This document shows, piece after piece, positions 9,676-21,690 of a stretch of 64,000 nucleotides of DNA. The position numbers and the translations under genes are program-made. Positions within the stretch are counted from its first letter, which is position 1. Every line of letters starts with the position of its first letter. Under the pieces are notes generated by a model, which did no database searches, was not told where the DNA came from, and saw nothing but the letters and a program-made list of their open reading frames with translations. The stretch lies in the NCBI GenBank assembly GCA_017440805.1, contig JAFSGN010000016.1, positions 1 through 64,000 on the forward strand. Direction: 5' to 3'. This DNA is from Clostridia bacterium. Lineage in GTDB: Bacteria > Bacillota > Clostridia > Oscillospirales > SIG627.

Positions 9676-9840
9676 ATGAAAGAAAATACCATTAAAAAGA
9701 TTATTGCTTACAATGAAAATTCGCTCCGGGATATTGACATAAACCATAATATCCTGTATAATATAATGAATGGAATGTTGGATGTAATATCCTATTCAAA
9801 ATGGCTTTTTGTTTTAATTTTTCATACAGAAGGAGAATAA
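9676..9840 (+). CDS. Tiny ORF overlapping the galE promoter, probably truncated or non-functional
   Basis: A 54-codon frame starts MKENTIKKIIAYNENSLRDI behind AGGGGGAC, a fair RBS. However, the consensus galE promoter (9734-9762) lies within it and its end contains the galE RBS. The N-terminal half looks like a small protein and the C-terminal half (SKWLFVLIFHTEGE) like read-through into the galE leader. The likely reading is a gene truncated when the present galE upstream region was formed. Confidence 0.3.
   Translation: MKENTIKKIIAYNENSLRDIDINHNILYNIMNGMLDVISYSKWLFVLIFHTEGE
9734..9762 (+). promoter_or_regulatory. Consensus sigma-A promoter of the galE-PAP2-TerB operon
   Basis: TTGACA (9734-9739), 17-base spacer, TATAAT (9757-9762): a perfect consensus. 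It starts transcription near 9769. No other clear promoter was seen between here and the end of the giant helicase gene at 21631, so this may drive the entire six-gene run. Confidence 0.88.
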
Positions 9841-9842
9841 CA

Positions 9843-10841
9843 ATGAATGTACTTGTAACAGGAGGCATGGGATACATAGGTTCCCATACATGTGTTGAAC
9901 TCACAAACATCGGTCACAACCCCATTATAATTGACAATCTTTCCAATTCTAAACCGGAAGTTCAGGACAAAATAGAAAAAATAACCGGCAAAAGACCTGT
10001 ATTTTACGAGGGAGATGTTGCCGACAAATCTCTGCTCAACAAAATATTTACCGACAATAAAATTGAGGCTGTCATTCATTTTGCCGGATATAAGGCAGTA
10101 GGCGAATCGGTAGAGAAACCCCTTATGTACTACCGGAACAACATAGGAAATACAGTTGCTTTGTGCGAAGTTATGACTGAATTTAATTGCAAGAATATTA
10201 TCTTTTCTTCCTCCGCAACAGTGTACGGGGCACCCAAAAGTGTGCCGATAAACGAGGACTTTGAACTGCACTGCACAAATCCCTACGGAAGAACAAAATA
10301 CATGATAGAAGAAATTCTGCGTGACTTATATATCTCGGACAACACCTGGAACATTACCCTTTTGAGATATTTCAATCCCATAGGTGCACACGACTCCGGA
10401 CTTATAGGTGAAGACCCCCAGGGAATACCAAACAATCTTATGCCGTATATTATGAAAGTTGCTCTGGGAGAACTACCCTGCCTTAATGTTTTCGGAAACG
10501 ACTATAACACCCACGACGGTACAGGTGTGCGGGATTACATTCATGTTGTAGACCTTGCCAAAGGACATATAAAAGCACTTGAAAATCTCAACGGTATGTC
10601 TGTTTACAATTTAGGTACCGGAACAGGTTACAGTGTACTGGACCTTGTAAAAGCATTTGAAAAAGAAAATAACATTAAAGTTCCCTATGAAATAAAAGGC
10701 CGTCGTCCCGGCGATATTGACAGTTGTTTTGCCAATCCCGACAAAGCCCTGAAGGAATTGGGTTGGAAAGCGGAACTTAATGTTGAACAGATGTGTTCAA
10801 GTGTATGGAAATATGCACAGAACTATATAAATAAAAAATAA
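9843..10841 (+). CDS. galE: UDP-glucose 4-epimerase
   Basis: It interconverts UDP-glucose and UDP-galactose with bound NAD, feeding glycan and wall polymer synthesis. The 332-residue protein has the Rossmann GxxGxxG in VTGGMGYIGSH (residues 7-13), the YxxxK catalytic pair Y148/K152 in NPYGRTKY, and the family signature FSSSATVYG. Start at 9843 is chosen for the AAGGAG six bases upstream; an upstream in-frame ATG at 9801 would add residues unrelated to GalE. First gene of the operon leading into the TerB module. Confidence 0.95.
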   Translation: MNVLVTGGMGYIGSHTCVELTNIGHNPIIIDNLSNSKPEVQDKIEKITGKRPVFYEGDVADKSLLNKIFTDNKIEAVIHFAGYKAVGESVEKPLMYYRNNIGNTVALCEVMTEFNCKNIIFSSSATVYGAPKSVPINEDFELHCTNPYGRTKYMIEEILRDLYISDNTWNITLLRYFNPIGAHDSGLIGEDPQGIPNNLMPYIMKVALGELPCLNVFGNDYNTHDGTGVRDYIHVVDLAKGHIKALENLNGMSVYNLGTGTGYSVLDLVKAFEKENNIKVPYEIKGRRPGDIDSCFANPDKALKELGWKAELNVEQMCSSVWKYAQNYINKK

Positions 10842-10873
10842 TATCCGGTTTTTGCCGATTGATGAGGAATATA

Positions 10874-11410
10874 ATGGATTTTATTACAGAAATTGACTTT
10901 AAAATACTGGATTTTATCAGGGAGACTCTTTCCTGCAGTTTTTCAGACATATTTTTTAAATTTATTACCTTTCTGGGTGACGCCGGAATTTTATGGATTT
11001 TAGGTGCTTTTATACTTATCGCCACTAAAAAATACCGTGTATGCGGAATAGTTATGCTTTGCGGAATGCTTTTCGGACTTATAACAGGAAATTTTATTCT
11101 CAAGCCTCTTATAGCCCGTCCGCGTCCGTGCTGGATAAATACTGCGGTAACACTTCTTATAGAAAACCCCGACGACTATTCTTTCCCTTCGGGACACACC
11201 CTGTCATCCTTTATAAGTTGCACGGTTTTGGGATTGTATGAGCGTAAATTCCTTTTTGTCGCTCTTCCTCTTGCCTCGCTCATTGCACTTTCACGGCTTT
11301 ACCTGTATGTTCACTTTCCCTCGGATGTCATCTTTGCCGTTCTGTACGGTGTGTTAATAGGATTTTTTGCCTACAAAATAACTGAGAAATATATCAGAAA
11401 GGCTGACTGA
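10874..11410 (+). CDS. PAP2-family membrane phosphatase (possible undecaprenyl-diphosphate phosphatase)
   Basis: The 178-residue protein has six hydrophobic segments and all three PAP2 motifs: KPLIARPRP (K77-P85), PSGH (105-108) and SRLYLYVHFPSD (S140, R141, H147, D151). Enzymes of this type dephosphorylate undecaprenyl pyrophosphate or other lipid phosphates at the outer membrane face. Start at 10874 is preferred because GAGG lies at 10864-10867; upstream in-frame starts at 10859/10862 lack an RBS. Its TGA overlaps the ATG of the TerB gene (TGATG), so translation of the two is coupled. Confidence 0.88.
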   Translation: MDFITEIDFKILDFIRETLSCSFSDIFFKFITFLGDAGILWILGAFILIATKKYRVCGIVMLCGMLFGLITGNFILKPLIARPRPCWINTAVTLLIENPDDYSFPSGHTLSSFISCTVLGLYERKFLFVALPLASLIALSRLYLYVHFPSDVIFAVLYGVLIGFFAYKITEKYIRKAD

Positions 11411-13023
11411 TGAAAGACGATTTTTGGGATATAGACAAACTCCTGCCATATAATCCTGCACGAAAAAAAACAACTCCTGCACCGGATTTGCCGGAGTATA
11501 TGTATAACATCACACAGGATGTAAATATTCCCCCAAAAATTCTCATCAGAGAACTTGACTTATCCGATATAACTCCGGAAAATGCCGTTGAATACGATTA
11601 TACCAAAAAAAGTTCGGTAATAAAAAGAGTAATAGTAAGTGATTGGCAGAGTGCATATTCCTACAGCAATGATTTTTCTTCGATTGCCCATCGCATACAC
11701 AATACCACGCCAACCAAAAAAGCGGAGTATGTTCCATTTTTTTCATATATGCCACAATACTCCGACCTTTCTGAAAAACAGTTTGATTTTTATCTTAACT
11801 GGCGGGAATGTGTGCGTGACGGAGAATATCCCACAACCGACTCCTCGTATATTTTTCTGTATGTTTATGAGTTACTTGCCATCGATGATATTATGCCACC
11901 CGAGAAAACGATGGGTATATTATCAGAATTATGGAAGCACTACCAGCATTCCAATCCGGAAATAGACCGTTATTTTTGTGAATGGATTGTAGACTATGCT
12001 TTAATACACAATTCCGTTATTGATTTTTCCTCTATTGAAACGGTTCTTATGAAGGTAAAATCGAAAAGGTATTCGGTTATTTTCAATTTGTTTCTTTTTG
12101 ACTATATATTTGCCCGCCGTGAACTTCTCACACTGGACAATATAAAATTTGCCTATGATATTCTGGGAAACTATTCGCCTTTTAAAAATAAGTTCTATAC
12201 CGACAAACAATACAAGGATTTACTTGATTTTTGTATAGTTCAGGTCTTTCTTAAACTTTTTGATGATGGATTTTTTTCAAATGTGTCACCTTCTCTTTAT
12301 CAACAGGAATTGAAAATGTCCCGTCCGTCTTATTCAAGTGCCGTTTGTTCGCCTGTCACAAAGAAAAACATCACACTTGAATATCTGCCGTTTATGACAA
12401 ATGAACTTATGCGGATATCATTTTCCAATGTATCAAAGTACATTGAAAATAAAATCCGGCATTACTTGGGATATAAAAGCAGGTTGTCCAATGTTGTCCT
12501 GGCTGATAATATCCGAAATATAATCGACCTTTATATGGACAGTCATTATCCCCCGCAACGCAGACCGATGCATAAGAAACCACCCGTTATAAACGAAACG
12601 AAAGAAATAAAAAAAGTAAGTGTAAACCTCCGGAAAGCAAAGGAAATAGAAGACGCTTCATGGAAAACCACCGAAAAACTCACCGTGGGACTTGAAATTT
12701 TTGACGACTCTGACCTTGATGTTTTTTCCGATGAACAAAACAATGTTTTTTCCTTGCCCGACAACGAAAAACAAAATCCGTGTTGCTCTCTTGACTCAAT
12801 TTTTGAACCTCATGAGTCGGAAATGATTAGTCTTCTTTTAAAAAACACACCCTGGCAAAATATTCAGTCTATGCTCCTTGAAAAAGGATGTTTGCCGGAT
12901 GCCGTGGTTGGTTCTGTCAACGAAAAAGCACTGGATGCTATCGGTGACACAATTATAGACACCAATGACTACACATTAATACCAGACTATATAGAATTAT
13001 TATCCTCTTTCAATGATGTGTGA
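11410..13023 (+). CDS. TerB_N and TerB_C domain protein, first gene of a DNA-processing module
   Basis: In this 537-residue protein the N-terminal half matches the TerB_N domain: VSDWQSAYSYSNDF (76-89), VPFFSYMPQYSDL (108-120) and WRECVRDGEYPTTDSSYIFL (131-150). The last 70 residues match the end of TerB_C: LLEKGCLPDAVVGSVNEKAL and GDTIIDTND. Between them (about 385-460) is a charged, probably disordered linker. TerB_N/TerB_C proteins were placed by Anantharaman, Iyer and Aravind (2012, from memory) in gene neighbourhoods with ATPases, helicases and nucleases and proposed to act in DNA processing, probably as a regulatory or scaffold part. The gene overlaps PAP2 by one base and is followed by the ATPase after 13 bases. 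No metal-resistance ter genes are present, so tellurite resistance is unlikely. Confidence 0.82.
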   Translation: MKDDFWDIDKLLPYNPARKKTTPAPDLPEYMYNITQDVNIPPKILIRELDLSDITPENAVEYDYTKKSSVIKRVIVSDWQSAYSYSNDFSSIAHRIHNTTPTKKAEYVPFFSYMPQYSDLSEKQFDFYLNWRECVRDGEYPTTDSSYIFLYVYELLAIDDIMPPEKTMGILSELWKHYQHSNPEIDRYFCEWIVDYALIHNSVIDFSSIETVLMKVKSKRYSVIFNLFLFDYIFARRELLTLDNIKFAYDILGNYSPFKNKFYTDKQYKDLLDFCIVQVFLKLFDDGFFSNVSPSLYQQELKMSRPSYSSAVCSPVTKKNITLEYLPFMTNELMRISFSNVSKYIENKIRHYLGYKSRLSNVVLADNIRNIIDLYMDSHYPPQRRPMHKKPPVINETKEIKKVSVNLRKAKEIEDASWKTTEKLTVGLEIFDDSDLDVFSDEQNNVFSLPDNEKQNPCCSLDSIFEPHESEMISLLLKNTPWQNIQSMLLEKGCLPDAVVGSVNEKALDAIGDTIIDTNDYTLIPDYIELLSSFNDV

Positions 13024-13036
13024 AAGGAAAACATAT

Positions 13037-14374
13037 ATGTCCGAAAATATTATTCCTCTTAAAATCCCAAAAAGAATTTTAGGAACCGTGCTTAACTCCG
13101 CTTCTGCCGGTGTTGTTCCCCGTTTTGGACTTGAATATATGGCAATCGGCCGGAATGACGAAGTCAATGCACTTTTGAACGGTCTTGAAAATATTGCAGA
13201 CGGAATGGGAAACTGCCGTTTCATAATAGGTAAATACGGCAGCGGAAAAAGTTTTTTGATAGGTCTTCTCAGATGCAATGCGCTGGAACGGGGTTTTATA
13301 ACCGCGGATACGGATCTTTCTCCTGAACGCAGATTTATAGGCACACGCGGTCAAGGAGTGGCAACCTACCGTGAACTTATGAAAAATCTTGCCTCAAAAT
13401 CTTCTCCCGACGGCAGTGCGCTTTCTGTAATCCTGACAAAATGGTTTACCGAACTTCAAAGCAACATAGTTCTGAAAGACGGTATTCCCCAAAACAGCCC
13501 TCAGTTTTCTTCAGCAATGGAAAGCAAGATAATAGAAGTCACATCCTCTCTTGAAACTCTTGTTAACGGCTTTGATTTTGCATCAGTGATTACCATGTAC
13601 TACAATGGGGTAAAAAACGGTGATGACGAAAAGAAATCCTCCGCATTGCGTTGGCTGCGGGGCGAATTTTCCAACAAACTTGAGGTACGCGTCGCTCTTG
13701 GTATAAACTCTATCATTGACGATTCAAACTGGTATGATTATATAAAACTTTTTGCCGTATTTTTCAGAAAAATAGGATATAAAGGTTTTGTTGTGCTGTT
13801 TGACGAATGTGTAAATCTATATAAAATCCCCCACAAAATGTCCAGAGAAAACAACTATGAAAAAATTCTTTCCATGTTCAATGACACTCTTCAGGGCAAA
13901 GCAGAGGGACTGGGGCTTATATTCGGAGGTACTCCGCAGTTTATGGAAGACGAAAGACGGGGGCTTTACAGTTATGATGCCTTGAAATCAAGGCTTACGG
14001 GAAGCCGTGTGGCAAACAGCAGATTTAAGGACTTTATGGGTCCTGTGATATACCTTAACCGTCTGAGTGACGACGAATTATTTGCTTTAATCATGCGTAT
14101 GTTAAGTCTGCACAAGCAGTATTACAACTGGCAACCGGATGTAAGCGACCAGGAAATACTTTCTTTTCTCCAGATATGTTTCAACAAAATGGGAGCAGAT
14201 ACCATGCTGACTCCCCGTGAAATAATACGCGATTTTCTCGGTGTGCTGAACATTATGTATCAAAACAGCGGGCTCACCTTTTCCGAAATAATCTCGGACA
14301 GCAAAAGCCTTTTAAAAAGCGATAACACACAGAACGACGACGATTTATTTGACTTGGGCACTATCGAATTATGA
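13037..14374 (+). CDS. BrxD-like P-loop ATPase (DUF2791)
   Basis: In this 445-residue protein the Walker A is GKYGSGKSF (65-73) and Walker B is VVLFDECVNL with D256/E257. The hallmark of DUF2791/BrxD-type ATPases, IFGGTPQFMEDERRGLYSYD, follows, then a conserved region with EIIRDFLGVLN. In BREX systems BrxD is paired with a BrxHI helicase, as here with the next gene. It probably uses ATP to load or remodel a DNA-bound complex. Start at 13037 is chosen for AAAGGAAA 7 bases upstream; earlier in-frame ATGs at 13013/13016 overlap the TerB gene and lack an RBS. Its stop overlaps the next gene's start (ATGA). Confidence 0.85.
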   Translation: MSENIIPLKIPKRILGTVLNSASAGVVPRFGLEYMAIGRNDEVNALLNGLENIADGMGNCRFIIGKYGSGKSFLIGLLRCNALERGFITADTDLSPERRFIGTRGQGVATYRELMKNLASKSSPDGSALSVILTKWFTELQSNIVLKDGIPQNSPQFSSAMESKIIEVTSSLETLVNGFDFASVITMYYNGVKNGDDEKKSSALRWLRGEFSNKLEVRVALGINSIIDDSNWYDYIKLFAVFFRKIGYKGFVVLFDECVNLYKIPHKMSRENNYEKILSMFNDTLQGKAEGLGLIFGGTPQFMEDERRGLYSYDALKSRLTGSRVANSRFKDFMGPVIYLNRLSDDELFALIMRMLSLHKQYYNWQPDVSDQEILSFLQICFNKMGADTMLTPREIIRDFLGVLNIMYQNSGLTFSEIISDSKSLLKSDNTQNDDDLFDLGTIEL

Positions 14375-16590
14375 ACTTTAAACAAAAAGCAGAGAGAGTA
14401 TACAACTCCTTTTCTCCTTTTATACGGGACTATATTTATCGCAACCAATGGGACAGTATAAGAGAAGTTCAGGTAGAAGCGGCAGATGCCATATTTTCAA
14501 CCGAAAACAATCTTTTAATTTCATCTTCGACAGCCTCGGGAAAAACGGAAGCAGCATTTTTTCCGATACTTTCGCTTATGCACAGCAATCCGCCATCTTC
14601 CGTGGGAGTTTTATACATTGCACCTCTCAAGGCACTTATAAATGACCAGTTTGAAAGACTGAATCTTCTTATGGAAGAAAGCGGTATCTCAGTTTTCCAC
14701 TGGCACGGCGATGTCTCCGCCTCACAAAAAAACAAGTTTCTTAAAAATCCTGCCTGCGTACTGCAAATTACACCCGAATCACTGGAAAGTATGCTTATTA
14801 AACGAAAGAACGATATTCCGAGATTGTTCAGTGATTTACAGTTTGTGATTATAGATGAAATACACACTCTTATGGGATTTGACAGAGGAAGTCAGGTAAT
14901 CTGTCTTATTGAGCGGCTGTCCCGGCTTATCGGCTATTCTCCGCGGAGAATAGGACTTTCCGCCACTGTAGGCAATACCCGACTTGCATGCGAATGGCTT
15001 TCGAAAAATACATTTCGCAACTGTTCTGTTGTAAATATCAAAAATTCCGGAATAAACTGGCGACTTGCCTTACAGCATTTTTTCATCTCCGATACACAAA
15101 GTGAAAATATCAATTCGGCAAATGACAGCGGATATGAATTTGTTTACAACTGTACCCGTAACAAGAAAAGTCTTGTTTTTTCAAATTCCCGCGAGGAAAC
15201 AGAAATTGTAACGGCAACTTTGCGTCAAATAGCCGAAAGACGAAATGAAAACGATATATTTTACATTCACCACGGAAACCTTTCCTCCTCGCTCAGAGAA
15301 CAGGCCGAATCGGTTATGAAAGACGACAGTACCCACGCAGTTACCTGTGCGACAGTTACTCTTGAGTTGGGTGTTGATATAGGCAAACTGGAACGGATTG
15401 TAAATATAGGTTCGCCCAACAGTGTTTCCAGTTTTCTTCAGCGTATAGGCCGTTCGGGAAGACGCGGCGCCCCCTCGGAGATGGTTATGGTTTTCCGTGA
15501 AGAAAACCCTTTACCCAACGCCCCCGTTTATCAGCTTATTCCCTGGTCTCTTTTACAGGCAATTGCCATAATACAATTGTATCTTGAGGAACGATGGCTG
15601 GAGCCGCCTTTCAAAAAGGCACAGCCTTTCAGCCTTTTATATCACCAGACAATGTCGGTTCTGGCATCCTCCGGCGAGATGTCACCCGCACAACTTGCCC
15701 AGGCAGTTTTATCCCTTGCTCCTTTTGAAAATGTATCAAAAGAAGACTACAGAGAACTTTTAATCCACCTTATCAAAACGGAACAAATACAGCAGACAGA
15801 AGAAAAAGGACTTATAGTCGGTTTAAAAGGCGAAAGAGTTATAAACAATTTTAAATTTTTTGCAGTTTTTAAAGACAGTGAGGATTTTACGGTAAGACAT
15901 AAATCCGAGGAAATAGGAACTATCACCACTCCCCCTCCGGCAGGCGACCGTTTTGCTCTGGCAGGTCAGGTATGGGAGGTTGAGGAGGTTGATTTGCAAA
16001 GACGGCTTATTTATGTAAATCCCGTAAAAGGCAAAATGGAAATATCCTGGCCGGGTGATGCAGGTGAAATTCATACAAAAATACTTGAGAGAATGAGAAT
16101 GGTTCTGAAGGAGGACACTATTTACCCGTATCTGAAACCCGAAGCGGTAAAACGACTTGAAAACGCCCGTAATCTTGCCAGAAATACAGGTATATTAAAA
16201 ACAGGTCTTGTTCATCTGGGAGGTTTTAATTACTGCCTGTTTCCGTGGATGGGCACCCGTTCTGTCCGTTCTCTCAAACGGTTTATACAACACAAATGTG
16301 CCCCGGCTTTAGGCATAACATCCATTGAATATGACAACTGCTATTATATCTGTTTTAAAATGGAGCGGTTTTCCGGGCAGGACTTTATTGAATATTTAAA
16401 TTCAACTATTGCCAGAGAGGGTGTAACCCTTTCCCAACTTGTAGGTGAAAACGAATTTCCTCTGTTTGAAAAATATGATGAATATATCCCCAAAAAACTT
16501 TTGCAAAAAGCATATTACACAGATAAACTTTGTTCTGAAGAACTTATAATGCGTGTAAAAGAATTAAAAAAAGATTTTGTGCGAAATTAA
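14371..16590 (+). CDS. Lhr-like SF2 DEAD/DEAH helicase (BrxHI-like)
   Basis: In this 739-residue protein superfamily 2 motifs are in order. Motif I is SSTASGKTE (52-60), Ia APLKALINDQ, and motif II DEIH (162-165). Motif III is LSATVGN (197-202), motif V TLELGVDIG, and motif VI QRIGRSGRRG (about 356-365). The C-terminal 350 residues contain winged-helix/Lhr-type accessory regions. DNA translocase of the family found next to BrxD in BREX-related loci. ATGA overlap with the ATPase gene means coupled translation. No nuclease domain is fused. Confidence 0.9.
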   Translation: MNFKQKAERVYNSFSPFIRDYIYRNQWDSIREVQVEAADAIFSTENNLLISSSTASGKTEAAFFPILSLMHSNPPSSVGVLYIAPLKALINDQFERLNLLMEESGISVFHWHGDVSASQKNKFLKNPACVLQITPESLESMLIKRKNDIPRLFSDLQFVIIDEIHTLMGFDRGSQVICLIERLSRLIGYSPRRIGLSATVGNTRLACEWLSKNTFRNCSVVNIKNSGINWRLALQHFFISDTQSENINSANDSGYEFVYNCTRNKKSLVFSNSREETEIVTATLRQIAERRNENDIFYIHHGNLSSSLREQAESVMKDDSTHAVTCATVTLELGVDIGKLERIVNIGSPNSVSSFLQRIGRSGRRGAPSEMVMVFREENPLPNAPVYQLIPWSLLQAIAIIQLYLEERWLEPPFKKAQPFSLLYHQTMSVLASSGEMSPAQLAQAVLSLAPFENVSKEDYRELLIHLIKTEQIQQTEEKGLIVGLKGERVINNFKFFAVFKDSEDFTVRHKSEEIGTITTPPPAGDRFALAGQVWEVEEVDLQRRLIYVNPVKGKMEISWPGDAGEIHTKILERMRMVLKEDTIYPYLKPEAVKRLENARNLARNTGILKTGLVHLGGFNYCLFPWMGTRSVRSLKRFIQHKCAPALGITSIEYDNCYYICFKMERFSGQDFIEYLNSTIAREGVTLSQLVGENEFPLFEKYDEYIPKKLLQKAYYTDKLCSEELIMRVKELKKDFVRN

Positions 16591-16603
16591 GGAGAGTTAA
16601 ATT

Positions 16604-19600
16604 ATGAGTTCAATAATTAAAATTCTGCCATACAATATATCCCACTATTCATACAATCTTTACAGCAACAACATACCGCTTATAAATTCGTTGCTTTTAG
16701 AGGTTGAACCGTCCGAAAAAATATCGGATTTTTACGGAAAAGACCTTTGCGTCACCATAAAATCAACGCCCGAACTTTTCTTTCCGTACCAGCGATATAT
16801 AAGCATTAATGCCGACGGACGATGCGACATTTCGGATATTGAACTTGAAATTCGTTCTCATTCTCTGAAAAATATAACCAAATCGGAAAACTGCACAATT
16901 GATATTGCGGTAATAGACCGTAACGAAACTTTCGGCACACTTTCCTTTACAATAGACCTGCTTCCGTACTATTGCTGGAGCGGTTTCAGTTTTATTCCCG
17001 AGCAGATTTGTACCATGGTTACCCCAAATCAACCCGAAATAGAACAAATAGTTTCTTCTGCATATACTCTCCTGCGTGAGCGGGGCGAACTCCCCATTAC
17101 CGACGGATATGAAAAGAAAAACATAAAAAAGGTTTACGCCGTTACCCGTGCCATATACGATTCTATCCGAAAATTAAAAATTACATATAACATAACCAAA
17201 ACAGATTATCTTTCAAAGTATGTTTTTCTTCAAACCTGCGAGATGCTGATGGACAGAATGATTGGCAGTTCGCTTGATATATCCCTTGTATTTGCGGCAT
17301 GTCTTGAAAATCTGGGGCTTAATCCTATAATCGCAATTTACAGGAATCATGCCCTGGTAGGATGCTTTCTTTCAGATATAAGTCTTGAAAATCCCGTAAC
17401 CGAAAACCATTCCGATTTTCACAGAATGACAAAGAGCACAAACAAACTGCTTTTCCTTATTGAACCTACATCAATGGCAAACGGAATGAGTATCGATTTT
17501 GAAAATTCCTGCCGTATGGCAAAAGAATATACTGTAAAAAATTCGGATTCTTTTACCGCACTTATTGACATTAAAGCCGCACGGCTCCGCGGTGTTCAGC
17601 CAATGCCGAACAGAATCACCGAAAACGGCATCCGCCGTTTTGAAAAAAAAGAACACTTTTTTGATGATTTCTTTGATAACTTTGTAGAAATTAACGACGA
17701 GAACACAGATGACACCGACCGTGAACTTGCCCGTGTAAAAAACGAAATTTTTGACATTTCGGAAAACAATCCCCTTATAAATACCGACTTTGGAAATACA
17801 ATAGGTCTGGCATATCCGTCTGTTGATGCTCTTCCGGATTTTCTCTCAGAGCAAAGACTTGTTCTTCCATATCCCTGCAAAATTGAAAACAATCTCTCAC
17901 CCGAACAACTTTGTTCATTGCCCGACACTCCCGAAACAGAAACTCAGAACGGCATCGTTTCTTTTCATTCTGCCGACAAACTCAAAAAACTTCTGAATAA
18001 TATTTCGGTTTTTACAAACGCCGATAAATATTACCGTTACAACACATATGTAACACTGTATTATGCAAAATGGCAGTCGCCCGACTCTTTAAATATAAAT
18101 TATACCCCCATGTTTCTTTTCCCTTGTGAAGTTACCGAAATGTCTGAAAGTTGCAAAATCAGACTTTTGAACGAAAAAGCAATTTTAAATCCGCTTTTTC
18201 TTGAACTTCTCAATAAACTTTTCACAGTAAACTTTTCCACACTTTCTAAAATTCCATCCCGCGAAATATTAAACCGCAGAGAATACATTTTTACTGTAAT
18301 TGCCTCTGCGTTCAGCGGAAAAAACAAAATAAAATTTATACCGTACATTGCACTTGGAGCATACGAAATTTTTTCATTCAGCGATTACAATGTACTTACC
18401 AAAAATGCCCTTACCGCATCACAGTATGCACCGGACATCTTCATGGGCAATAAAATAAATTCTCCGTTAATCCAGTCTGAACCTGTCAACACCGACACAA
18501 TTTTCCCGTTAAGTATGCCCTGCCCTCTGGAACTTGACCATTTTCAGAAATCCGCATTACATAACGCCCTGAAAAATGATATATCTCTTATCAGCGGCGG
18601 CTCAAATTCGGGAAAAACAAGAATTGCGGCAAATCTTATATTCAATATGCTTTATTCCTCCAAGAATGTATTATACATCGGCGGTACAAAAAGCGCATGT
18701 GAAGATATAAAGGATTATTTGACTCAGTTGAATCTTGACAAATATATGCTTTATGTCTGTCCTCATTCTCCGGAACTTTCAGGTTCTTTCGATGTTCCGC
18801 CGCAACCGGAAAAGCGTCCCTCAAATCTTTATGTACAGGCACAACGCCTGGTACAAAAGAAATCCGATATTGCAGCATATTACAATGCTCTTCACAAAAA
18901 GCAGGGGAACGGTTTTAACTTATATCAGACGGTTATGCAATATGAAAAATACAAGAATGCCAAATTCTGCGTACCGTTTTCGCCAAGTTATATAAAGGAA
19001 CTTGATGATGATAAGGTAATAACTGCTTTCAGACAAATATCAGAGATTATAAACGCAGCCAAAGAAAGCGGTCTGCCCTACCGTCATCCCCTTCTTAAAA
19101 TAGGCCGTAAGAATTTCTCGTACGAAATGAAGTCACAAGCGGTATCCCTTATAAACTCCTATAAGGCGGCGCTTGAAAGTTTTCTCGACTCACAGGACGA
19201 AATTTGTGAGTTGATGTACATTGACATTGAACTTCTCAGAGAAGACCAGACAGACTCGCTGTGCAAAATTGCAGAACTTCTCAAAAATAACAGTTCGGAC
19301 ATTCCTGCATCGGTTTTCCGTGACAGTAATTGCAAAGAACTGCTCAAAAGGATTCATTCGGTTATTGACAATGCCGAAAAGCGCCTTGTAAGTTCAAAAC
19401 AGATATTGGAATTGTTTTCTCCCAAAATTTTTGAACTCAACGCATCGGAACTTCTGGAAGAATATAAAAATGCACTTTCCGCTTTCTTCATAAAACGCAA
19501 CGGTATTTTCAGCAAACTGGTAAATATTCTTAAAAAATATTTGCTTGACGGAAAAACCATCTCCCACGACTCACTTTCCGATGTTTTATATTCGCTTGTA

Positions 19601-21631
19601 CATTATGCAAAGTATAACACCGCTATATCCGCCCAAGCGGCAGATTTTAAAGAGTTGTTCGGAATTGATATGTTTGCTCAGACCATATCCGAAGAGACGG
19701 CAAATCTTAAAAAACTGCGCCAAATATATTCCGCATGTGACGGATATATCATGCATATCGAAAATATATGCCGTCGTGAATGTGAACCATCAGCCTTGCT
19801 CTCCGGACAGGCAGATTTGGTTTCCTCTTATAATCAATCGCCTGATATGTTTATCAGAAAATTCAGCGAATTTAAAAACCATCTGCACAATTTCTGCGAA
19901 GCGGAAAGCACTTTTGTAAAGTTCCTCAATGTAGATATTTATTCACTTAAAGATAAAATGTCTCTCAAATGGTACGAATATCTGTATTCATGGCTGACTG
20001 AACTGGAGCAATCCATTGACGGCCTTAAGAGTTGGTGTAACTATCTTAATGTCCGTGAAACCGCTCTTAATATGGGACTGGAAAGTGCAATAAATCTTTT
20101 TGAAAACAATCAAATTGATTTTGACGAATTCAAACAGGCTTTCCTCAAAGGATTCTTCAAAGCATCCTGCGAATATATTCTTTCAACAGAAAAAGTTTTT
20201 GCCGACTTTTCACAGGCTTCCTGCGTTTCTTCGTGCGAAGAAATAGGAGAACTTATTTCTGAACTCGACAACATTTTAATTAAAGATTTGCAAATCAAAC
20301 TTCAATCCGATTACCGCGATTACCACAACAATTATATAAATGATACAGAAGAGAAATCCTATCTGGACTCCAAGGAACTTGACGAACTTTTTGCATCAAA
20401 CCAAAAACTTATGCAAAAACGCTTTCCGGTTACAGTTTCCTACGGTTCTTCCATCGCCAAGTATATCAGCGATGACAAGTTTGATTGCATTATAATTGAT
20501 GACGCCCACGCTGTACCGTACTATTCATTGCTGCCCTTATTGTCACACAGTACCAAGACAATTTTCCTCGGTATGAATACTTACTGTGACAAGGTACTTT
20601 TCAGTGCACCGTCACTTCACTCTCTTACATCCAGGAAAGTTTCCCATGCTTCAATATCTTTGTATTCACGGCTTATACAGTGCGGTATTCCTTGTTTTGA
20701 ACTTTCATACAAATACGGAACAAGAAGGGACCACGCCGCTTTTACGGGGGAAGTTTTTGCATCTCACAGTGAGCATTCCGTTCCCTATGCTTTACCGGAA
20801 GAACATAAGATAAATATAATTCCTGTAAACGGTGTATTTGACAGACGGGGAACACCCATAAACTTTGCAGAGGCATCATGCGTTACAGAAAACCTCAAAA
20901 AATTATCGCCGGAACAGACCACCGCGGTATGCGCATTTACACGAGCCCAAGCAAATCTCATAAAGGATATGTGGAATGCTCTGGGAATATATAATCCTAA
21001 TTTGAGAATATATTCCATAAACGATTATCCGTCGGGATGCTTTGATAATGTTATTGTTTCAACCACATTTTCAAACAGCAACAACACCGAGGCCATTCCT
21101 TTCTGTCCTACGGAAGTATCATCTGAAAATTACCGTCTGCGTCTTAACTATCTGCTTTCTTCGGTTTGCGGCAACTTTACGGTAATAACAGGACTTTTGG
21201 AAAATTCACTCGACAGTATAGAACCGTATACCGACAGTTTATATGCTTTGAAGCGGTTTATAAAATTTATTTACAACAGGGTAACCTATACTGCACCCAC
21301 AAAAATCCGTGAACTTGACCGTAATTTCATAAAAAATGAAATATGCGAATTTCTTCAGAAACTGGGTTATGAAACTGTTCGTAATCTGGGAAGTTCCGAG
21401 ATTAAAATTGATGTTGCGGTGAGAAATACAAGCGGTAACGGTTTCTCGCTGGGTATTCTTCTGGACAATTACTGCGGTGAGTCAAGTGACATATATACTA
21501 CCGAAATTCTTATGCCGGACATTCTTAAAGAAAACGGCTGGAATGTCATTCGCATATTCACAAACGAATGGTACGAAAACTATAACAAGCAACTGGAAAA
21601 AATATCGGATAAATTGTCCCAACTGAAGTAA
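16604..21631 (+). CDS. Giant transglutaminase-like / DUF4011 / SF1 helicase / REase-fold protein
   Basis: The 1675-residue protein begins with a region (about 130-260) that resembles the transglutaminase-like fold of DUF4011 helicases: GSSLDISLVFAACLENLGLN and NHALVGCF (H249). The usual catalytic Cys of GxCLD is Ser223 here. IFDISENNPLIN (about 383-394) matches the DUF4011 LLDLSxRNPLLN signature. The SF1 core has Walker A GGSNSGKT (665-672) and Walker B IIDDAH (D1299, D1300), separated by about 630 residues of helical insert. The last 100 residues look like the Vsr/MTES_1575 REase fold: E1579, GSSEIKIDVAV with D1603, then GILLDNY where families usually have IxxDG with an acidic residue two before the D. 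The last gene of the module, RBS AAGGAG, is followed by a hairpin. Probable DNA translocase-nuclease or an inactive scaffold version. Confidence 0.82.
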   Translation: MSSIIKILPYNISHYSYNLYSNNIPLINSLLLEVEPSEKISDFYGKDLCVTIKSTPELFFPYQRYISINADGRCDISDIELEIRSHSLKNITKSENCTIDIAVIDRNETFGTLSFTIDLLPYYCWSGFSFIPEQICTMVTPNQPEIEQIVSSAYTLLRERGELPITDGYEKKNIKKVYAVTRAIYDSIRKLKITYNITKTDYLSKYVFLQTCEMLMDRMIGSSLDISLVFAACLENLGLNPIIAIYRNHALVGCFLSDISLENPVTENHSDFHRMTKSTNKLLFLIEPTSMANGMSIDFENSCRMAKEYTVKNSDSFTALIDIKAARLRGVQPMPNRITENGIRRFEKKEHFFDDFFDNFVEINDENTDDTDRELARVKNEIFDISENNPLINTDFGNTIGLAYPSVDALPDFLSEQRLVLPYPCKIENNLSPEQLCSLPDTPETETQNGIVSFHSADKLKKLLNNISVFTNADKYYRYNTYVTLYYAKWQSPDSLNINYTPMFLFPCEVTEMSESCKIRLLNEKAILNPLFLELLNKLFTVNFSTLSKIPSREILNRREYIFTVIASAFSGKNKIKFIPYIALGAYEIFSFSDYNVLTKNALTASQYAPDIFMGNKINSPLIQSEPVNTDTIFPLSMPCPLELDHFQKSALHNALKNDISLISGGSNSGKTRIAANLIFNMLYSSKNVLYIGGTKSACEDIKDYLTQLNLDKYMLYVCPHSPELSGSFDVPPQPEKRPSNLYVQAQRLVQKKSDIAAYYNALHKKQGNGFNLYQTVMQYEKYKNAKFCVPFSPSYIKELDDDKVITAFRQISEIINAAKESGLPYRHPLLKIGRKNFSYEMKSQAVSLINSYKAALESFLDSQDEICELMYIDIELLREDQTDSLCKIAELLKNNSSDIPASVFRDSNCKELLKRIHSVIDNAEKRLVSSKQILELFSPKIFELNASELLEEYKNALSAFFIKRNGIFSKLVNILKKYLLDGKTISHDSLSDVLYSLVHYAKYNTAISAQAADFKELFGIDMFAQTISEETANLKKLRQIYSACDGYIMHIENICRRECEPSALLSGQADLVSSYNQSPDMFIRKFSEFKNHLHNFCEAESTFVKFLNVDIYSLKDKMSLKWYEYLYSWLTELEQSIDGLKSWCNYLNVRETALNMGLESAINLFENNQIDFDEFKQAFLKGFFKASCEYILSTEKVFADFSQASCVSSCEEIGELISELDNILIKDLQIKLQSDYRDYHNNYINDTEEKSYLDSKELDELFASNQKLMQKRFPVTVSYGSSIAKYISDDKFDCIIIDDAHAVPYYSLLPLLSHSTKTIFLGMNTYCDKVLFSAPSLHSLTSRKVSHASISLYSRLIQCGIPCFELSYKYGTRRDHAAFTGEVFASHSEHSVPYALPEEHKINIIPVNGVFDRRGTPINFAEASCVTENLKKLSPEQTTAVCAFTRAQANLIKDMWNALGIYNPNLRIYSINDYPSGCFDNVIVSTTFSNSNNTEAIPFCPTEVSSENYRLRLNYLLSSVCGNFTVITGLLENSLDSIEPYTDSLYALKRFIKFIYNRVTYTAPTKIRELDRNFIKNEICEFLQKLGYETVRNLGSSEIKIDVAVRNTSGNGFSLGILLDNYCGESSDIYTTEILMPDILKENGWNVIRIFTNEWYENYNKQLEKISDKLSQLK

Positions 21632-21637
21632 TAAAAA

Positions 21638-21690
21638 CACCTTCCGCGTAATAGTATTTTAATAACTATTAAAACGGAAGGTGATTTTTT
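21638..21690 (+). terminator. Terminator-like hairpin that also contains the RBS of the next gene
   Basis: CACCTTCCG (21638-21646) pairs with CGGAAGGTG (21675-21683), extended inside by TAATAGT/ACTATTA (21649-21655 with 21665-21671), and is followed by ATTTTTT. The 3' arm plus next base, GGAAGGTGAT, is also the Shine-Dalgarno sequence for the TTG start at 21689. The hairpin could therefore end the helicase transcript and, in transcripts that pass, hide the RBS. Confidence 0.75.

What the first reader, a model, noticed from the sequence alone, without database searches (positions are those of the whole stretch)
11410..21631. Four-gene TerB / BrxD-like ATPase / Lhr-like helicase / giant helicase-nuclease module
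The genes are packed as one translational unit (gaps of +13, -4 and +13 bases). They encode TerB_N-TerB_C, DUF2791 ATPase, SF2 helicase and a TGase-like/DUF4011/SF1/REase-fold protein. The ATPase-helicase pair resembles BrxD-BrxHI of BREX, but PglX, PglZ, BrxC/PglY and any methyltransferase are absent. TerB_N/TerB_C-linked helicase neighbourhoods have been predicted as DNA-processing systems (Anantharaman et al. 2012, recalled), but to my knowledge no mechanism is settled. It may be a compact anti-phage or genome-maintenance machine distinct from BREX.
Basis: partly seen in the sequence, partly recalled or inferred. Interest (0 to 1): 0.85.

Follow-up and report, generated by a model that had tools for sequence, protein, structure and literature searches.

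The report
Resident Shango system with eroded ProA partner
Three of the four genes are a known bacterial anti-phage system called Shango; in this bacterial family it is inherited like a normal chromosomal gene set and sits next to a giant helicase-like protein that has lost its helicase-active residues but is still maintained, which is an unusual evolutionary state for a defence system.

Summary
In detail: four tightly packed genes at 11410-21631. Genes 1-3 match the PADLOC models SngA (E 7e-47), SngB (1e-169) and SngC (2e-247), all better than the BREX models.

Gene 4 is a distant relative of the NCBIfam anti-phage protein ProA. It is not a regular Shango part: it is adjacent in only 7 of 89 Shango loci, and in its own family it also sits at the same site without SngABC. 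In all 12 family copies the helicase motifs III, V and VI and the transglutaminase-like cysteine are lost; full-length ProA proteins of the order keep them. Yet the frame is kept in 10 of 11 good genomes under purifying selection. It is best read as a pseudo-helicase.

New here is the inheritance. This Shango belongs to a SngB clade that follows family borders, is near-core in one related family (86 of 116 genomes), lies among housekeeping genes, and in 18 genomes has SngC separated from SngAB, with co-divergence in the 15 tested (r 0.92). This suggests a resident, vertically inherited Shango. Verdict: known system, new variant.

The parts
9734..9762 (+). Perfect sigma-70-type promoter-like site (TTGACA-17-TATAAT) upstream of galE; likely promoter of the whole unit
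   Evidence: 12 of 12 matches; a consensus match only
9843..10841 (+). galE-like UDP-glucose epimerase gene, first gene of the unit (host gene)
   Evidence: ORF 9801-10841, inner ATG at 9843; name from sequence reading, not scanned
10859..11410 (+). PAP2 phosphatase (host gene), last base overlaps the start codon of SngA
11410..13023 (+). SngA: TerB_N helical domain plus TerB_C; the C-terminus (about 459-537) is modelled as a winged helix
   Evidence: PADLOC SngA 7.4e-47; Pfam; AlphaFold2 model pLDDT 81 and wHTH matches Z 5-6
13037..14374 (+). SngB: BrxC/BrxD-family AAA+ ATPase, Walker A GKYGSGKS and Walker B FDE intact
   Evidence: PADLOC SngB 1.1e-169 against BrxD 8.2e-49; motifs
14371..16590 (+). 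SngC: SF2 DEAD/DEAH helicase with Lhr-like winged helix; motifs TASGKTEA, DEIH and QRIGRSGR intact
   Evidence: PADLOC SngC 1.7e-247 against BrxHI 6.7e-134; motifs
16604..21631 (+). Gene 4: 1675-aa eroded ProA-like protein (TGase-like domain, SF1/UPF1-like helicase fold, Vsr-like endonuclease fold); helicase motifs II(E), III, V, VI and TGase cysteine lost, P-loop kept, nuclease Asp 1603 and Asp 1621 kept; no C-terminal DUF3320 region
   Evidence: NCBIfam ProA 1.6e-158 but 530 bits against a cut-off of 1500; motif alignment; fold
21638..21690 (+). Terminator-like hairpin (CACCTTCCG...CGGAAGGTG, then a T run) after gene 4
   Evidence: -21.6 kcal/mol, z -5.7

Best explanation
Genes 1-3 are a Shango (SngABC) anti-phage module of a resident, vertically inherited kind. 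Shown by sequence: complete SngA, SngB and SngC with intact ATPase and helicase motifs, in a clade that follows family borders, inside a housekeeping transcription unit. Inferred mechanism: SngA (TerB domains plus a C-terminal winged helix) recognises foreign or replicating DNA. SngB, an ORC/Cdc6-like AAA+ ATPase, then loads the SngC helicase onto that DNA, and translocation blocks or unwinds invader replication. Gene 4 is a separate family-resident gene, a ProA/DUF4011-type protein that has lost SF1 helicase catalysis but keeps its fold, its Vsr-like endonuclease acid pair and, in this genus, a P-loop. It most likely acts as a DNA-binding or scaffold pseudo-helicase co-expressed with Shango, not as an active helicase-nuclease and not as an obligate Shango subunit.
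For: Identity. Published anti-phage activity of Shango: PMC10250203. Cassette conservation: SngA-SngB with SngC nearby in 70 of 89 loci. Intact motifs: SngB 89 of 89; SngC motif VI 85 of 86. Vertical clade: f1 monophyletic 98*, f20 22 rows 99*, f6 100*. Near-core in f20: 86 of 116 good genomes, 47 of 58 genera, with within-genus concordance 63 of 69 pairs against 48 expected, 0 of 5000 shuffles. Unlinked SngC kept in all 18 SngAB-only genomes, co-diverging with SngB, r 0.92, in the 15 tested. Gene 4 is independent of Shango: in one genus G009 has PfkB-[18 bp]-gene 4 while G010 has PfkB-SngABC-gene 4, with the same downstream genes and no SngABC relics. Gene 4 erosion. Gene 4 kept: 10 of 11 good family genomes, 8 of 8 genera; dN 0.31 with dS saturated.
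Against: The molecular mechanism of Shango is not settled in any paper I could read, so the loader-helicase model rests on family analogy. The winged helix in SngA rests on a model and Z of 5-6. Near-universal presence in a family also fits a non-defence role. Gene 4 keeps a P-loop in about half of the family copies and an invariant acid pair in its nuclease fold, so some activity may remain. MAG incompleteness blurs the presence/absence counts.
Confidence: 0.72

Rival explanations
1. Domesticated genome-maintenance machine: in this clade SngABC no longer serves mainly in phage defence but in replication-fork or DNA-damage handling, hence the core-like vertical inheritance, housekeeping operons and separated genes.
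For: 86 of 116 good f20 genomes carry SngB; the clade follows family borders; SngC is unlinked yet kept and co-diverges; flanks are AlaRS, RNase Y, Sua5-CoaE, TopA, SAHH, PfkB and PGM, not defence genes; SngC resembles repair helicases (YprA 2.6e-30 and Lhr-type).
Against: Patchy presence in the window's own family (12 of 22; 7 of 11 good genomes); clean absence at a preserved site in G009; SngA diverges fast (27% between genera against 58% for SngB), as expected of a sensor in an arms race; published Shango is anti-phage.
Confidence: 0.2
2. A true four-gene system in which gene 4 is the effector nuclease-helicase and SngABC the sensor and loader.
For: Adjacent and translationally close in 6 family genomes and one other (G147, with a motif-intact copy); one transcription unit; gene 4 co-diverges with SngB (r 0.89, largely from within-genus pairs).
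Against: Only 7 of 89 loci; full-length ProA not associated with Shango (p 0.75) and stands without an annotated Shango neighbour on plasmids; gene 4 occurs without SngABC in G009, G016 and G020; helicase motifs lost; three-gene Shango protects alone (PMC10250203).
Confidence: 0.1
3. A BREX (type 2) derivative.
For: BrxD/BrxHI-like pair; BrxD and BrxHI co-occur as a dyad in type 2 BREX (PMC12839542).
Against: SngB and SngC models win by hundreds of bits; BrxD scores 167 of a needed 350; no PglZ in the genome; TerB protein present.
Confidence: 0.02

Closest known systems
Shango (SngABC; published in E. coli and in P. aeruginosa PA14)
   Same: Same three genes in the order SngA-SngB-SngC, best-scoring family models, intact ATPase and helicase motifs.
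   Different: Here it sits in a housekeeping operon without its own promoter gap, belongs to a family-following clade, and is followed by an eroded ProA-like gene; relatives have SngC on another contig.
ProA / Hhe / PDC-S37 (DUF4011-DUF3320 giant SF1 helicase-nucleases)
   Same: Gene 4 aligns over most of its length with ProA and shares the TGase-like, SF1 and Vsr-like (MTES_1575) folds.
   Different: Below the ProA cut-off (530 against 1500 bits), catalytic motifs eroded, C-terminal DUF3320 region absent.
BREX type 2 BrxD-BrxHI dyad
   Same: ORC/Cdc6-like ATPase beside an Lhr-like SF2 helicase; likely a loader-helicase pair (PMC12839542).
   Different: No PglZ; SngB and SngC models score far better; TerB protein instead.

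Membership tests
Shango (SngABC) | TerB-domain protein SngA | tested here: met
   PADLOC SngA 7.4e-47, residues 69-531 of 537; Pfam TerB_N and TerB_C above cut-off
Shango (SngABC) | ATPase SngB closer to SngB than to BrxD | tested here: met
   563 against 165 bits
Shango (SngABC) | Helicase SngC closer to SngC than to BrxHI | tested here: met
   822 against 446 bits
Shango (SngABC) | Gene order SngA-SngB-SngC as one cassette | tested here: met
   gaps +13 and -4; same order in relatives
Shango (SngABC) | Protection against phage | not testable with these tools
   shown for other Shango copies in PMC10250203; not for this one
ProA anti-phage protein (NF058533) | Score above the curated cut-off (1500 bits) | tested here: not met
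   529.8 bits; none of the 22 family genomes passes
ProA anti-phage protein (NF058533) | SF1 motifs II, III, V, VI and TGase-like Cys, invariant or nearly so in the order's above-cut-off copies | tested here: not met
   lost in the window and in all 12 family copies; the P-loop is kept in the window
ProA anti-phage protein (NF058533) | C-terminal DUF3320 region (profile positions after about 1712) | tested here: not met
   matches end by position 1712 and the protein ends there; no Pfam match after MTES_1575
BREX type 2 | PglZ | tested here: not met
   no PF08665 match in the held genome, 94% complete
BREX type 2 | BrxD above the curated cut-off | tested here: not met
   167 against 350 bits
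BREX type 2 | PglX methyltransferase, BrxC/PglY, PglW | not tested
   no separate search was made; none is seen among the ORFs read around the module

The most novel reading that the evidence does not exclude
In this clade of Clostridia SngABC has become a resident chromosomal DNA-surveillance machine (standing immunity or genome maintenance), inherited vertically, with its helicase free to leave the cassette. In the window's family it is accompanied by a conserved pseudo-ProA that has been turned from a nuclease-helicase effector into a regulator, scaffold or decoy.
Probability: 0.3. Interest if true: 0.75.

Novelty: new variant of a known kind. Interest (0 to 1): 0.5.

Why it matters
Defence systems are usually thought of as mobile and patchy. 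A Shango clade that follows host families, is near-core in one family, and has genetically separated but co-diverging subunits gives a natural test of whether Shango is standing immunity or a cell-maintenance machine. The conserved giant pseudo-helicase beside it is an open, testable case of a defence enzyme kept after losing catalysis.

Tried and rejected
BREX membership: rejected on scores and absence of PglZ. Gene 4 as a standard Shango subunit: rejected by the survey (7 of 89) and by lack of association. The idea that loci without SngC had swapped in another effector: rejected, because the downstream genes are housekeeping (AlaRS, RNase Y, Sua5-CoaE, TopA, SAHH) and SngC is elsewhere in all 18 genomes. 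Gene 4 as a decaying pseudogene: rejected, because it is full-length in 12 genomes with purifying selection between congeners. Phage-borne copies of SngB: none in the phage collection. Solved structures: no sequence match to SngB or gene 4; SngA gave only weak MarR-type matches. Foldseek gave nothing significant for SngA; only the second look pointed to winged helices. Literature on DUF4011/DUF3320 anti-phage proteins gave little, and no mechanism paper for Shango was found.

Full report
WHAT IS THERE. The four ORFs exist as described, with gaps of +13, -4 and +13 bases. A perfect TTGACA-17-TATAAT site lies at 9734-9762. Promoter-like matches are common in this AT-rich DNA (55 found, 43 expected), but this is the only 12-of-12 match. 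Directly after gene 4 is a hairpin with a T run, z -5.7. The simplest reading is one transcription unit, galE-PAP2-SngA-SngB-SngC-gene 4.

IDENTITY OF GENES 1-3. Against PADLOC the three proteins hit SngA (7.4e-47), SngB (1.1e-169) and SngC (1.7e-247). The BREX models come second: BrxD 8.2e-49 and BrxHI 6.7e-134. NCBIfam BrxD stays far below its cut-off (167 of 350 bits). No PglZ is found in the held genome. Shango was reported as a three-gene TerB/ATPase/helicase system that protects PAO1 against several phages, and was earlier found in E. coli (PMC10250203). A helicase phylogeny placed SngC with BrxHI, DruE and DpdJ in an immune clade (PMC12278908).

GENE 4. Its best annotated relative is NCBIfam 'anti-phage protein ProA' (1.6e-158, but 530 bits against a cut-off of 1500), then PADLOC PDC-S37 and Hhe. 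The full-length ProA proteins found in the same order share an invariant GPPG[TS]GKS P-loop, FDEAS, VGDP[KN]Q, NVQGDERD and RxLNVAxSR[AS], and a TCxD...H pair in the TGase-like domain (one copy has CCLD). All 12 copies in the window's family have lost motifs III, V and VI and the cysteine, and the glutamate of motif II. The P-loop GK[ST] survives in the window, its congener, G010, G021, G009 and, in altered form, G016. The C-terminal DUF3320 region, described elsewhere as tandem winged helices (PMC3710099), is missing. What remains is the fold: the modelled C-terminal 436 residues match UPF1/IGHMBP2-type helicases (Z up to 14; the two-domain alignment has rmsd about 11, single-domain alignments about 3.5) and, at residues 330-436 of the model, Vsr-like endonucleases (NGO0050 Z 10.9; I-Bth0305I Z 10.7). 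Two nuclease aspartates (1603 and 1621) are invariant in the 12 rows aligned. The gene is not decaying: it is full-length in 12 of 22 family genomes and present in 10 of 11 good ones and all 8 genera. Between the window and its congener, amino-acid identity is 60%, dN 0.31, with synonymous sites saturated. The TGase-like and nuclease segments are the most conserved stretches. I conclude: a conserved pseudo-helicase. Whether the nuclease works is open.

IS IT A FOUR-GENE SYSTEM? No. Across 89 loci, SngC is near SngA-SngB in 70, but gene 4 is adjacent in 7: six in the window's family and G147. Of 15 genomes in the order with a ProA above cut-off, four are in the SngB-positive list, as expected by chance (p 0.75), and one has it adjacent. 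Three ProA relatives looked at on plasmids of Klebsiella, Pseudomonas and Bacteroides have no annotated SngABC neighbour (the plasmid gene table is incomplete). Within the window's family there is a clean presence/absence pair in one genus. G009 reads PfkB-(18 bp)-gene 4-small gene-polysaccharide deacetylase-unknown-phosphoglycerate mutase. G010 reads PfkB-SngABC-gene 4-small gene-deacetylase-unknown-mutase. The solo loci hold no SngABC relics. A second case is VTC-DUF4956-gene 4 in G020 against VTC-DUF4956-SngABC-gene 4 in G017 and G018. SngABC is thus a three-gene unit that is present or absent beside a resident gene 4; whether the event was gain or loss is not decided.

HOW IT IS INHERITED. 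The SngB tree (quick method; 89 rows) has two regimes. One clade follows host families (f1 98*, f20 22 rows 99*, f6 100*; f16 is a separate family-pure clade 99*). The rest mixes families. In f20 SngB occurs in 86 of 116 good genomes and 47 of 58 genera. Same-genus genomes agree in 63 of 69 pairs against 48 in shuffles (10 SngB-negative genomes were not listed and are not in this count). In 18 genomes SngAB stands without SngC nearby; all 18 hold SngC on another contig (one further such locus, L019, could not be tested). The neighbours are housekeeping genes. SngB and SngC distances still correlate at r 0.92 in the 15 unlinked genomes tested. Separated yet jointly kept genes point to vertical inheritance and shared function. 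In the window's own family the pattern is weaker: 12 of 22 genomes, monophyletic.

MECHANISM. Shown: intact SngB Walker motifs (89 of 89) and SngC motifs (VI in 85 of 86); SngA with a helical TerB_N region and a C-terminal winged-helix-like domain by model. Inferred: SngA recognises DNA, SngB loads SngC, and helicase action blocks invader DNA. The loader idea is proposed for BrxD-BrxHI in PMC12839542. SngA is the fastest of the three (27% between genera, against 58% and 54%), which fits a recognition subunit. Gene 4 is even faster (21%).

LIMITS. Most genomes are MAGs; absence may be missing sequence. The co-divergence of gene 4 with SngB (r 0.89) rests largely on within-genus pairs. NCBIfam's name ProA was not traced to a paper here.

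Noticed in passing
L133, L134, L137-L140, L142, L143, L145, L148, L152, L153, L159, L163 and SngC loci L189-L205: SngAB and SngC lie on different contigs in 18 genomes of several families, among housekeeping genes, yet both are kept and co-diverge.
   Followed up: yes
L104:6351-10827, L114:11036-15585, L115:2977-7459, L117:5030-9596: Tandem duplicated SngC helicases follow SngAB in one family (f19); the second copy tested in L104 is also a SngC by PADLOC.
   Followed up: partly
L014:7199-9970, L015:7114-9966, L017:7154-9970, L018:7177-9942, L110:10601-13081: SngA with extra length (820-950 aa against about 530) in Paenibacillus, a Chloroflexota MAG and one member of the order; the added domain was not examined.
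   Followed up: no
L122:1561-7371: A ProA-like protein with intact motifs directly follows SngABC in another family (G147): the one independent Shango-ProA pairing seen.
   Followed up: partly
window:9301-9430: A possible short peptide gene of about 40 codons and stem-loops lie in the intergenic region before galE; not analysed.
   Followed up: no
G091:C58:13583-14899: The SngB match reads through two TAG codons; could be a frame or edge effect or a recoded genome.
   Followed up: no
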